Shown here: one piece after another, positions 57,124 through 64,000 of the stretch | How positions within the stretch are numbered: the stretch's first letter is position 1 | How the letters are laid out: every line of letters starts with the position of its first letter | Position numbers and translations under genes: made by a program | The notes under the pieces: model-generated | Databases searched by the model: none | Told to the model about the DNA's origin: nothing | Seen by the model: only the letters and a program-made list of their open reading frames with translations | DNA from: Massilia forsythiae | Lineage (GTDB): Bacteria > Pseudomonadota > Gammaproteobacteria > Burkholderiales > Burkholderiaceae_D | Direction: 5' to 3' | Assembly: GCF_012849555.1 (NCBI RefSeq) | Contig: NZ_CP051685.1 | Location: 620,001 to 684,000 of the forward strand | DNA: 64,000 bases

Positions 57124-57525
57124 TCAGCGGAACGTGAAGTGCTTGTGCCCCAGGTAGCTGCTGAACACCGGCACCACCACGCCGACGCCATGGGCGATCT
57201 CCCTGGCATGCCGGGTCACGCCCAGCCATGGCAGCACCCAGTCCAGCAGGATCATGCTGACGGCCCAGGTCTGGGCCACCGCCAGCAGGTTGACCAGGAC
57301 GAACCAGCCGGCCGCGTGGTGCACCGACTGGCTGCTCGCGCGGAACACGAACAGGCGCGCCAGCACGAAGGCGGTCACCATCCCGGTGAGATAGGCGCAC
57401 ACGATCGCCGCCGAGAACGGCATCGCGCGGTTGTACAGGATGCGCGAGCCGAAGTTGACGGCCGCCGCCAGCCCGCCCGTGACCAGGAACACCAGGAACT
57501 GGCGCGAGGCGAACGCCTTGATCAC
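57124..57525 (-). CDS. GtrA-family membrane protein (putative polyprenyl-phosphate-sugar flippase)
   Basis: A 133-residue protein with four membrane helices, typical of GtrA: RQFLVFLVTGGLAAAVNFGS, AAIVCAYLTGMVTAFVLARL(FVF), WFVLVNLLAVAQTWAVSMIL and VVVPVFSSYLGHKHFTFR. It probably starts at GTG 57525, which overlaps the stop of the preceding oxidoreductase gene (GTGA). GtrA proteins are thought to flip polyprenyl-phosphate sugars. The M. tuberculosis relative Rv3789 lies beside dprE1/dprE2, as this one does in the same operon. It is the last gene before the terminator. Confidence 0.85.
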   Translation of the reverse strand: MIKAFASRQFLVFLVTGGLAAAVNFGSRILYNRAMPFSAAIVCAYLTGMVTAFVLARLFVFRASSQSVHHAAGWFVLVNLLAVAQTWAVSMILLDWVLPWLGVTRHAREIAHGVGVVVPVFSSYLGHKHFTFR

Positions 57526-58823
57526 GCGCCGGCCTCGCGTGCCATCTTGCGGCCGAAGTCGATGCTCTCCGAGATGCCGCGGTCTTCCGGATAATAGTAG
57601 GAGGTGTCGGCCACCCACAGGCCGCCCACCGGCAGCCTGGCCGGCGGCAGCCGGTCCAGGTAGCCCGGCTCGCAGATCGGCTGGGCGTAGCGGTAGCGGC
57701 TGGCGCGCATGTCGAGGAAGTCGGCGTCGACCAGCGCCGGATTGATCTTCATGAGGTAGCGCTTGACCTTGTCCAGGAAGGCCTGGTCCGGCTCGGCGAA
57801 CTTCGGGTGCTCGCCCGGCATGTAGAACGGCACGTAGACGATGTGCTGGTTCCCCATCGGGCGCAGGTTGGTGTACTCGACCAGGCCGGGGATGTCCATC
57901 TCCTCGTCGTTGGTGTTGAGCCAAAAGTTCTCGGTGACCGCCTTTTTCAGCTTGGCGATCACGCACACCACGGCGATGTTCTTCTTCGAGCGGAAGGCGT
58001 CCAGCGTGGCCGGCGGCAGGTCCGGCATGATGCGCGGCACGTAGGGCAGCGGGATGGTGCTGATGACCTTGTCGAAAGCCTCGATCTGGCCGCCGGCTTC
58101 CACGCCGGTCACCCTGCCGCCCTCGATGAGCACGCGGGTGGCCGGCGTCTGCAGGCGCAGGATGCCGCCGTGCCGTTCGATATCGGCGCGCATCGCCTCC
58201 AGCACGGTGGCCGAGCCGCCGTCCAGGTAGCCCAGCTTTTCCTTGAACAGGCTGTAGCGCGAGCGGCCGATGCGGCGGATGCGGCTCCAGATCCAGGCCG
58301 CCGACAGGTTGTCGCTGTAGTCGTAGAATTTGTAGTCGAACAGGCGGCGCCACAGCACTTCCCAGGCTTCGGCGCCGACGTTCTTCCTGATCCAGCCGCC
58401 GGCTTCGACGTGATCGAGCGGCTTCCAGTCGTCGCGCTTGGTGGACAAGAAGGCGTGCAGGCCATAGCGGAACTTGGCCATGAAACCGAGGCCGCGGAAC
58501 TTCAGCAGCGCCACCGGGTTGCCCCACGCCTGCACCTCGTTGCGGTACCAGTAGCCCATCCTGGTCGCCACCCAGTGCATCTTCGCGGCCAGCCCGAGCT
58601 CATCCAGCACCTTCAGGAAGGCGTGGTCCGAGATCGCGTGGAAGTGGTAATAGCGTTCGATCGACGTGCCGGAAAAATCGAAGTGGGCGGCCATGCCGCC
58701 GACGCGGTCGTCGGCTTCGTAGACCACCGGCTGGTGGCCGTCGCGCGCCAGTTGGTAGGCCACGGCCAGGCCCATCGGCCCGGCGCCCAGGACGGCGATA
58801 CGCTGCTTGCTTGACTGATTCAT
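57522..58823 (-). CDS. NAD(P)/FAD-dependent oxidoreductase (protoporphyrinogen-oxidase-like fold)
   Basis: A soluble 433-residue flavoprotein. The N-terminal FAD motif IAVLGAGPMGLAVAYQLARDG and YEADDRVGGMAAHFDF are those of the amine-oxidase/protoporphyrinogen-oxidase/UDP-galactopyranose-mutase group, and the C-terminal GGLWVADTSYYYPEDRGISE closes the FAD site. Members of this group are common in glycan and lipid clusters, but the substrate is unknown. It abuts the epimerase gene directly (stop TGA next to ATG) and overlaps gtrA by four bases, so it is firmly part of the operon. Confidence 0.8.
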   Translation of the reverse strand: MNQSSKQRIAVLGAGPMGLAVAYQLARDGHQPVVYEADDRVGGMAAHFDFSGTSIERYYHFHAISDHAFLKVLDELGLAAKMHWVATRMGYWYRNEVQAWGNPVALLKFRGLGFMAKFRYGLHAFLSTKRDDWKPLDHVEAGGWIRKNVGAEAWEVLWRRLFDYKFYDYSDNLSAAWIWSRIRRIGRSRYSLFKEKLGYLDGGSATVLEAMRADIERHGGILRLQTPATRVLIEGGRVTGVEAGGQIEAFDKVISTIPLPYVPRIMPDLPPATLDAFRSKKNIAVVCVIAKLKKAVTENFWLNTNDEEMDIPGLVEYTNLRPMGNQHIVYVPFYMPGEHPKFAEPDQAFLDKVKRYLMKINPALVDADFLDMRASRYRYAQPICEPGYLDRLPPARLPVGGLWVADTSYYYPEDRGISESIDFGRKMAREAGA

Positions 58824-62569: not shown

Positions 62570-63874
62570 TCAGCTTCCTATCAAACGGCGCGACATCGAC
62601 GAGCTGATGCCCGGGTCGCGGTATTGCAAGAATTCGGCCAGGCGCGGATAGCCCGATTCGAACAGGTCGCGCGGCATGCGCGCATCCTTGGCGGCGTAGA
62701 TGCGCCCGCCGGCGGCGCGCACGATGGCGTCCAGGCGTTCGAACAGGCGCAGGGTCGGCGCGCCGCGGTTGGGAAAGTCCAGCGCCAGCGTGACGCCGGG
62801 ACGGGGAAAACTCATCATGCCCACGCTCTCGCGCGCGCCGAAGGTCTTCAGCACGGCCAGGAACGAGCCCTGCCCGGACGCCTTGATCGCCTCCAGCATC
62901 GCGCCCACCGCGGCCTGGCCGCCGGCGCGCGGCACCACGCTCTGGTACTGGTAGAAGCCGCGCGGGCCGTACATGCGGTTCCAGTGATGCAGGTTGTCGA
63001 GCGGGTAGGTGTATTGTTCGAAGTGGGCGATGGCGTGCCCGGCCTTGAGCGCATTCAGGCGGAAATAGGTTTCGTTGAACGGGCGCAGCGACAAGCCGTT
63101 CACCAGCGACACCGGCGGCACGAACGGCACGCTGTTCGCTCGCCGCCCCGCCTGCGCCTGCAGGTCCGGAATGGCAGCCGGGTTGGCGCGGAAGAACAGG
63201 CCGCGGCCGATGCCGGACAGGCAGTCGATCCACGACACGGTATGCTCCCAGCCGGCTTCCGAAGCGTCGGCCAAGGCGAAGAATTCGTCGAGATTGCGGT
63301 ACGGGACGGTATCGGTCACCAGCCAGGGCCCGGCCACGCGCCGCAGCTGCAGCTCGGCCTCGACGATCACCCCGGTCAGGCCCATGCCGCCGACGGTGGC
63401 GGCGAACCACGGGTCGCCCGGCGCGCAATCGATCACGGCGCCGTCGGTGCGCGCCAGGCGCAGGTGCAGCACGTGGTCGCCGAACGCGCCGAGCACATGG
63501 TGGTTCTTGCCGTGCACGTCGTTGGCGATGGCGCCGCCGACGGTGATCATCTGGGTGCCGGGCGTGACCGGCAGCAGCCAGCCGTGGGCCAGGCTCATGC
63601 GCTGGATGTCGCGCAGCAGCACGCCGGCCTCGCAGCGCAGCCGGCCGCTGGCGGCGTCGAATGCGATGAAGCGGTCCATGGCGGCCGTGCGCCACAGGCG
63701 CCCGCCCGGGTTCAGGCAGACGTCGCCGTAGCTGCGCGCATTGCCCTGCGCCAGTCCGGTGACGGCATCGGCGCCGCGGCGCGCGATCTGGCGCGCCACC
63801 CGGCCGCGGTCGGACAGCGCCACCAGCTCGTGCTCGCCGCTCGCCAGCCGGCCCCACGACGACACCTTCACCAT
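62570..63874 (-). CDS. DprE1-like FAD-dependent oxidase
   Basis: A 434-residue FAD-binding PCMH/ALO-type oxidoreductase. The FAD region PVTPGTQMITVGGAIANDVH continues with the GKNHHVLGAFGDHV stretch, very close to that of mycobacterial DprE1, which oxidises the 2'-OH of decaprenyl-phosphoryl ribose. The N-terminal GLAQGNARSYGDVCLN is also typical. The C-terminal part includes FERLDAIVRAAGGRIYAAKDARM. ATG 63874 gives MVKVSSWGRLAS; a GTG six bases earlier is possible. The start overlaps the stop of the upstream ubiA-like gene. Whether the benzothiazinone-reactive cysteine is present was not determined. Confidence 0.85.
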   Translation of the reverse strand: MVKVSSWGRLASGEHELVALSDRGRVARQIARRGADAVTGLAQGNARSYGDVCLNPGGRLWRTAAMDRFIAFDAASGRLRCEAGVLLRDIQRMSLAHGWLLPVTPGTQMITVGGAIANDVHGKNHHVLGAFGDHVLHLRLARTDGAVIDCAPGDPWFAATVGGMGLTGVIVEAELQLRRVAGPWLVTDTVPYRNLDEFFALADASEAGWEHTVSWIDCLSGIGRGLFFRANPAAIPDLQAQAGRRANSVPFVPPVSLVNGLSLRPFNETYFRLNALKAGHAIAHFEQYTYPLDNLHHWNRMYGPRGFYQYQSVVPRAGGQAAVGAMLEAIKASGQGSFLAVLKTFGARESVGMMSFPRPGVTLALDFPNRGAPTLRLFERLDAIVRAAGGRIYAAKDARMPRDLFESGYPRLAEFLQYRDPGISSSMSRRLIGS

Positions 63875-64000
63875 GGCCACCCGAGCGCGCCGGCCAGCAC
63901 CACCGCCCCGAAGGCCAGCCCGGCCAGCCGGCTGGCGCGGTCCTTCACCGCGAACACCAGCGGGTCGTCGTGCATGTGGCCGCGGTGCGCCTGCATCCAG
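63868..64000 (-). CDS. UbiA-family prenyltransferase, C-terminal fragment at window edge
   Basis: The last 43 codons of a gene that starts beyond the window. The reading is WMQAHRGHMHDDPLVFAVKD then RASRLAGLAFGAVVLAGALGW. The ...RGxMHDDPVVFAxxDR motif is typical of UbiA-type polyprenyl-phosphate phosphoribosyl or sugar transferases. It is truncated by the window edge, not broken. It overlaps the dprE1-like start by seven bases and probably supplies the prenyl-phosphate sugar that the DprE1/DprE2-like pair epimerises. Confidence 0.75.
   Translation of the reverse strand, partial: WMQAHRGHMHDDPLVFAVKDRASRLAGLAFGAVVLAGALGWPW

What the first reader, a model, noticed from the sequence alone, without database searches (positions are those of the whole stretch)
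57124..64000. Decaprenyl-phosphoryl-arabinose-like operon in a betaproteobacterium
The order ubiA-like (partial), dprE1-like, dprE2-like, multi-pass membrane protein, epimerase, FAD oxidoreductase, gtrA recalls the mycobacterial locus (Rv3789 gtrA, Rv3790 dprE1, Rv3791 dprE2, Rv3792 aftA, with UbiA Rv3806c). All genes overlap or nearly abut. DprE1-type motifs (GGAIANDVHGKNHH) are unmistakable. If functional, this organism makes a polyprenyl-phosphate pentose and transfers it to an unknown surface glycan or lipid.
Basis: partly seen in the sequence, partly recalled or inferred. Interest (0 to 1): 0.78.

Follow-up and report, generated by a model that had tools for sequence, protein, structure and literature searches.

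The report
Extended lipid-linked pentose sugar operon
A soil bacterium carries a seven-gene operon that probably builds a five-carbon sugar on a membrane lipid by the route mycobacteria use for arabinose, then changes it with two further enzymes and attaches it to a surface sugar chain, so the final sugar may be one whose making is not yet known.

The parts
63868..64000 (-). 3' end of the HAD-UbiA fusion gene (496 aa; continues to the equivalent of window 65358): phosphoribose phosphatase domain (residues 26-165) + polyprenyl-phosphate phosphoribosyltransferase (226-464)
   Evidence: DLDGT at 28 and NDLLDLESD at 258
62570..63874 (-). DprE1-like FAD oxidase (polyprenyl-P-ribose 2-oxidase)
   Evidence: NCBIfam NF053785 349.6 bits (cut-off 500), PDB 4aut E 7e-70, HGKNHH at 121
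61816..62568 (-). DprE2-like SDR (2-keto reductase)
   Evidence: PDB DprE2 21gq E 1.8e-25; NCBIfam NF053786 146.7 bits (cut-off 250), PRK07102 229 bits
59780..61801 (-). GT-C glycosyltransferase with C-terminal CBM35-like domain (residues about 537-673)
58824..59783 (-). extended SDR (NAD epimerase/dehydratase family), predicted lipid-linked pentose epimerase/reductase
   Evidence: Pfam Epimerase 55.6 bits; GGAGLVG and YTRSK; 55-75% identity in 12 relatives, in the same operon order in the 11 not cut by a contig end
57522..58823 (-). FAD protein of the PRK07233 / amine-oxidase fold, predicted to act on the lipid-linked pentose together with the SDR
57124..57525 (-). GtrA-family flippase
   Evidence: Pfam GtrA_DPMS_TM 54.9 bits

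Best explanation
An extended three-component pentose-glycosylation operon. [quoted passage not shown] the DprE1-like and DprE2-like proteins invert C2 to give polyprenyl-P-D-arabinofuranose. Step inferred from gene coupling alone: the SDR and the FAD enzyme convert this lipid sugar into another pentose before export. GtrA then flips it, and the GT-C enzyme, with its CBM-like tail, puts it on a surface polysaccharide in the periplasm. For the unknown step I favour a redox-neutral isomerisation, with two candidate products: (a) D-lyxose, if SDR/FAD invert C3; (b) L-xylopyranose, if the FAD enzyme is a mutase-like furanose-to-pyranose isomerase and the SDR a C4 epimerase (D-arabinopyranose and L-xylose are C4 epimers). 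I put about 0.25 on (a), 0.2 on (b), and the rest on some other modified pentose or on the rivals.
For: Core. GT-C fold with CBM. Coupling: in the family sample the SDR is in 7 of 145 genomes (E up to 1e-20), close FAD relatives (75% or more) in the same 7, DprE1 in 15 of 145 including those 7. In the phylum sample the SDR is in 7 of 398 (E up to 1e-25), DprE1 in 44 of 324 (E up to 1e-40), and all 7 SDR genomes are among the 44. In the plasmid collection the SDR is in 7 records, DprE1 in 63, and all 7 SDR records have a DprE1 hit within about 2.5 kb of the SDR; the 4 that I opened, one Burkholderia and three alphaproteobacteria, show the same six genes in the same order. 17 of these loci have a distant DprE1 (42-47% identity) and yet SDR at 66-76% and FAD at 71-80%, and the SDR label changes 8 times on the DprE1 tree, at least 5 forced by starred branches: the pair looks like a unit that re-joins DprE1 backbones. 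Both SDR motifs are intact in 95 of 95 sequences, six loci being counted twice.
Against: No chemistry was tested. The FAD fold is nearest to phytoene desaturase and protoporphyrinogen oxidase, which are not sugar enzymes. Distant FAD relatives (29-32%) stand near GT2, GtrA or GT-C genes without this SDR, so that kind of FAD enzyme may not need it. One locus (L087, Massilia brevitalea) keeps SDR-FAD-GtrA in a genome without a DprE1 hit, though its GT-C is only a C-terminal remnant; L157 has its DprE1 elsewhere in the genome; L120 lacks a GtrA. The L-xylose version has no support from the Burkholderiaceae-like family: the SDR is in 8 of 249 genomes and the one that I checked resembles Cupriavidus, not Ralstonia. 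The 80 loci were chosen by SDR similarity, and related genomes are not independent.
Confidence: 0.6

Rival explanations
1. A plain D-arabinofuranose system: the lipid donor is polyprenyl-P-D-arabinofuranose and is transferred as such; SDR and FAD modify the acceptor glycan or something else that merely goes with it.
For: DprE1 genomes without an SDR hit are common (8 of 15 in the family; 37 of 44 in the phylum), and DprE1/E2 homologues are the reported mark of Araf systems (PMC11127046, Discussion).
Against: SDR-FAD sit in one operon between DprE2 and GtrA across beta-, gamma- and alphaproteobacteria, while the GT-C and the neighbouring genes change. An acceptor enzyme should vary with the acceptor, not go with DprE1.
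Confidence: 0.17
2. The FAD enzyme works on the polyprenyl chain (desaturation, saturation or isomerisation near the phosphate), not on the sugar, so that GtrA or GT-C recognises the changed lipid.
Confidence: 0.12
3. A mycobacterium-like arabinan polymer is built at the cell surface.
Confidence: 0.04

Closest known systems
Three-component pentofuranose systems (Citrobacter youngae O1/O2; PMC11127046)
   Same: HAD-UbiA PPPRS with the same catalytic motif spacing, optional epimerases, flippase, GT-C with C-terminal CBM; DprE1/E2 homologues named there for Araf systems
   Different: Here both DprE1/E2 and a further SDR plus a FAD enzyme; GtrA instead of the MATE-type flippase. The paper mentions multiple candidate epimerases in Xanthomonas and Bacillus and says their significance warrants investigation; its supplement could not be opened here, so this very gene set may be drawn there
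Mycobacterial DPA pathway (Rv3806c, Rv3807c, Rv3790, Rv3791, Rv3789)
   Same: UbiA, DprE1, DprE2 and GtrA-type homologues
   Different: HAD phosphatase fused to UbiA, extra SDR+FAD, a GT-C with CBM-like tail, no arabinan polymerases noticed in the operon
noeC-noeH-noeO-noeP Nod factor arabinosylation (Azorhizobium, Rhizobium sp. IRBG74; PMC5080398)
   Same: UbiA/DprE1/DprE2-type route to lipid-linked D-Araf in a Gram-negative
   Different: No SDR-FAD pair mentioned in the passages read; the acceptor is a Nod factor

Membership tests
Three-component pentofuranose system | PPPRS: UbiA domain with the NDxxDxxxD active-site motif | tested here: met
   UbiA residues 226-464; NDLLDLESD at 258, same spacing as N247/D248/D251/D255 of ORF15; 8j8j E 3e-28
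Three-component pentofuranose system | phosphoribose phosphatase (HAD) domain on the PPPRS | tested here: met
   Pfam HAD 35.5 bits, residues 26-165, over its cut-off 27; DLDGT at 28
Three-component pentofuranose system | GT-C transferase (GT136 in the prototype) | tested here: inconclusive
   GT-C fold with CBM-like tail found by model; kinship to GT136 not tested, ORF12 sequence not at hand
Three-component pentofuranose system | dedicated flippase | tested here: met
   GtrA family, Pfam 54.9 bits over its cut-off 26.1; a different family from ORF14; flipping itself not testable
Three-component pentofuranose system | lipid-linked pentose made and transferred after polymerisation | not testable with these tools
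   needs biochemistry
DprE1 (NCBIfam NF053785 equivalog) | score over the curated cut-off 500 bits | tested here: not met
   349.6 bits; hence called DprE1-like
DprE1 (NCBIfam NF053785 equivalog) | closest solved relative is DprE1; HGKNHH motif | tested here: met
DprE2 (NCBIfam NF053786 equivalog) | score over the curated cut-off 250 bits | tested here: not met
   146.7 bits; PRK07102 scores 229, below its own cut-off 267; hence called DprE2-like
ORF13-type Rib-to-Xyl C3 epimerase | orthology to C. youngae ORF13 | not tested
   no ORF13 sequence at hand and no clear relative found
UDP-galactopyranose mutase | match to the GLF family | tested here: inconclusive

The most novel reading that the evidence does not exclude
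The operon makes a pentose donor not yet described: polyprenyl-P-D-lyxose (both C2 and C3 of ribose inverted) or polyprenyl-P-L-xylopyranose (ring isomerisation of arabinose plus C4 inversion). A lipid-level flavin-dependent sugar isomerase would be a new enzyme activity, and the operon, seen in alpha-, beta- and gammaproteobacteria, would be the source of a surface sugar of unknown origin.
Probability: 0.45. Interest if true: 0.82.

Novelty: new variant of a known kind. Interest (0 to 1): 0.6.

Why it matters
Surface sugars decide how bacteria meet phages, plants and immune systems. The known lipid-linked pentose route gives Rib, Ara or Xyl; Kelly et al. note that lyxofuranose is in no solved carbohydrate structure and that the need for a double inversion could explain this. 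A conserved operon that adds two enzymes after the arabinose step predicts a further sugar and makes the question directly testable by lipid and glycan analysis of a soil Massilia. If the FAD enzyme isomerises a lipid-bound sugar, it would be a new flavin chemistry with uses in glycoengineering.

Tried and rejected
Mycobacterial arabinan locus: not favoured because the phosphatase is fused, the GT-C model is as near to ArnT as to AftA, and no arabinan polymerases were noticed in the operon. Chance proximity of SDR/FAD: rejected. ORF13 comparison: could not be made. HAD-UbiA gave a hit in 1 of 295 genomes of the family of G182; the 20 HAD-UbiA loci showed no SDR hit among the five neighbours on each side; in the 7 plasmid regions opened of 83 records no epimerase gene is directly beside HAD-UbiA, though L256 has rfbB, L257 a UDP-glucuronate decarboxylase gene and L260 a galE some kilobases off, which I did not compare. 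The FAD structure search did not separate sugar from isoprenoid enzymes. Literature: ten searches listed no title on the SDR-FAD pair; two lists were capped (12 of 38, 20 of 31), most papers were seen as listings only, and the library holds open papers only. A paper on Oxalobacteraceae O-antigen clusters (PMC9834719, term search and passages) has none of the words prenyltransferase, arabin-, xylose, epimerase or GtrA in its main text. Rfam: no match in the window. Phages: one partial match to UbiA, 29% of the query.

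Full report
What is there. The window is G000:C1:620001-684000 of a 6.37 Mb genome. Its closest named SDR relatives are Massilia species (90-93% identity). The seven genes run on the - strand with junctions between a 7 bp overlap and a 14 bp gap. The first gene lies mostly past the window end: a 496-aa fusion of a HAD phosphatase (residues 26-165) and a UbiA prenyltransferase (226-464), best NCBIfam model PRK08238, 677 bits. Upstream, 347 bp separate it from a divergent open frame. A -10-like TATAAT is visible by eye just before its start; the promoter scan of the region listed one different site, against 0.3 expected.

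Core enzymes. The UbiA half matches the solved mycobacterial decaprenyl-phosphate phosphoribosyltransferase (8j8j, E 3e-28) and keeps the NDxxDxxxD motif with the spacing of the residues tested in C. youngae ORF15 (PMC11127046). DprE1-like: 4aut E 7e-70. DprE2-like: 21gq E 1.8e-25. Both are below NCBI's equivalog cut-offs, so I call them '-like'. GtrA: Pfam 54.9 bits.

Known kind. Kelly et al. 2024 (PMC11127046; read: abstract, parts 1-3 of 4 of Results, the section on ORF13, Discussion) show that HAD-UbiA makes polyprenyl-P-ribofuranose, that an SDR (ORF13) decides for xylofuranose, that a GT-C adds the sugar after polymerisation, and report DprE1/E2 homologues in candidate systems of Araf-containing glycans. 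Azorhizobium and Rhizobium noeC/H/O genes use the arabinose route (PMC5080398, passages). In the family sample I see three kinds: HAD-UbiA or UbiA hits in 32 of 145 genomes (E up to 1e-18), of which 15 carry DprE1 and 7 of those also SDR+FAD. Around the 20 further HAD-UbiA loci fetched, none of them beside a DprE1, no DprE1, DprE2, SDR or FAD hit stood among the five neighbours on each side, as expected of ribose systems.

The distinctive part: SDR and FAD. Among the 80 genome-contig loci (best 80 of 511 relatives; six are the same loci as in the set of 12), 64 hold the full order; 7 show SDR-FAD-GtrA only, 2 lack only UbiA, 2 lack only GtrA, and 5 are shorter still. Of these 16 exceptions, 13 meet a contig end and three do not: L120 has no GtrA hit, L157 has its DprE1 elsewhere in the genome, and L087 lies in a genome without a DprE1 hit and holds only a C-terminal GT-C remnant. 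Of the 11 loci without DprE1, nine have 0.1 to 5.2 kb of DNA upstream of the SDR. In the plasmid collection all 7 SDR records also have DprE1 close by; the four opened (Burkholderia, Agrobacterium, Rhizobium, Rhodobacteraceae) show the same six genes in order. In the phylum sample DprE1 is in 44 of 324 genomes and all 7 SDR genomes are among them; by my arithmetic about 4e-6 for six random non-self genomes, not a strict probability as genomes are related.

Modularity. By DprE1 the 69 loci that have it fall into two sets: 52 at 56-85% and 17 at 42-47% identity to the window. SDR is 66-93% and 66-76%, FAD 64-94% and 71-80%. On a DprE1 tree of 67 rows (36 with SDR) the SDR label changes 8 times, at least 5 forced by starred branches; shuffled mean 22.4, 0 of 500 as low. 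So the SDR is clustered on the tree and yet was gained or lost several times; where it is present FAD goes with it (78 of 80 loci, the other two, L092 and L136, ending right after the SDR). In one operon without the pair (L045) GtrA is 45% identical although HAD-UbiA is 71% and DprE1 67%; in the pair operons of the same family GtrA is 62-70%. This suggests that GtrA goes with the pair, but other pair loci reach down to 36%, so it is a hint only. The GT-C is the variable part: 25 of 71 loci have no gap between DprE2 and SDR, 36 a gap of 1.0-2.8 kb and 10 more; in 41 of the 45 gap loci tested an open frame with 7 or more hydrophobic stretches fills it.

What the pair does. The logic is nesting: SDR+FAD occur where DprE1/E2 occur, not the reverse. 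So the substrate is most likely lipid-linked arabinose (or its keto intermediate). SDR motifs are intact in 95 of 95 sequences, six loci counted twice, and profile relatives are dehydratases, epimerases and complex I subunits. The FAD protein has the fold shared by phytoene desaturase, protoporphyrinogen oxidase and UDP-galactopyranose mutase; of these only the mutase acts on sugars (general knowledge). A second oxidase/reductase pair at C3 would give D-lyxose; a mutase plus a C4 epimerase would give L-xylopyranose. Distant FAD relatives sit near GT2, GtrA or GT-C genes without this SDR, as in L077, which fits an enzyme that works alone on lipid-linked sugars, but also one that works on the lipid. 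I cannot decide between these.

Acceptor. Around some relatives I see glycan genes: rhamnan synthesis and glycosyltransferase genes in the Agrobacterium plasmid, pseudaminic acid genes in Rhizobium tumorigenes, and glycan-like open frames in the Cupriavidus-like genome (names by eye). A surface polysaccharide is the likely acceptor; in the window nothing that I looked at next to the operon tells which.

Verdict. A real, complete operon; new variant of a known kind, with an unassigned two-enzyme extension that is conserved widely enough to expect a specific product.

Noticed in passing
L077:7915-12587 (also L075, L076, L078): Distant relatives of the FAD enzyme (29-32%) sit near GT2, GtrA or GT-C genes; in L077 a compact GT2-GtrA-FAD-GT-C set, a possible system that remodels other lipid-linked sugars.
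   Followed up: partly
L087:9355-12642: Massilia brevitalea keeps SDR-FAD-GtrA next to a GT-C remnant that aligns only to the C-terminal part (461-671); no DprE1 hit in the genome: it looks like a decayed operon.
   Followed up: partly
window 62570-63874 (DprE1-like residue 364): The cysteine of M. smegmatis DprE1 in pgwnvCvdfp (recalled to be the benzothiazinone target) aligns with alanine in pgvtlAldfp.
   Followed up: no
L248 (Agrobacterium salinitolerans pDG3-1a): The six-gene set lies on a plasmid typed as conjugative, beside glycan genes, which suggests spread by transfer.
   Followed up: no
window 52282-52587: An open frame that reads SSPRRRGPMPS...GPRLRGDD on one strand and much the same on the other, the look of a palindromic intergenic repeat.
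   Followed up: no
L090 and L131: Parts of the operon (DprE1 to GtrA in L090, SDR-FAD-GtrA in L131, both cut by contig ends) appear in metagenome bins named Anaerolineales and Nitrospira at 70-73% SDR identity; transfer or mis-binning.
   Followed up: no
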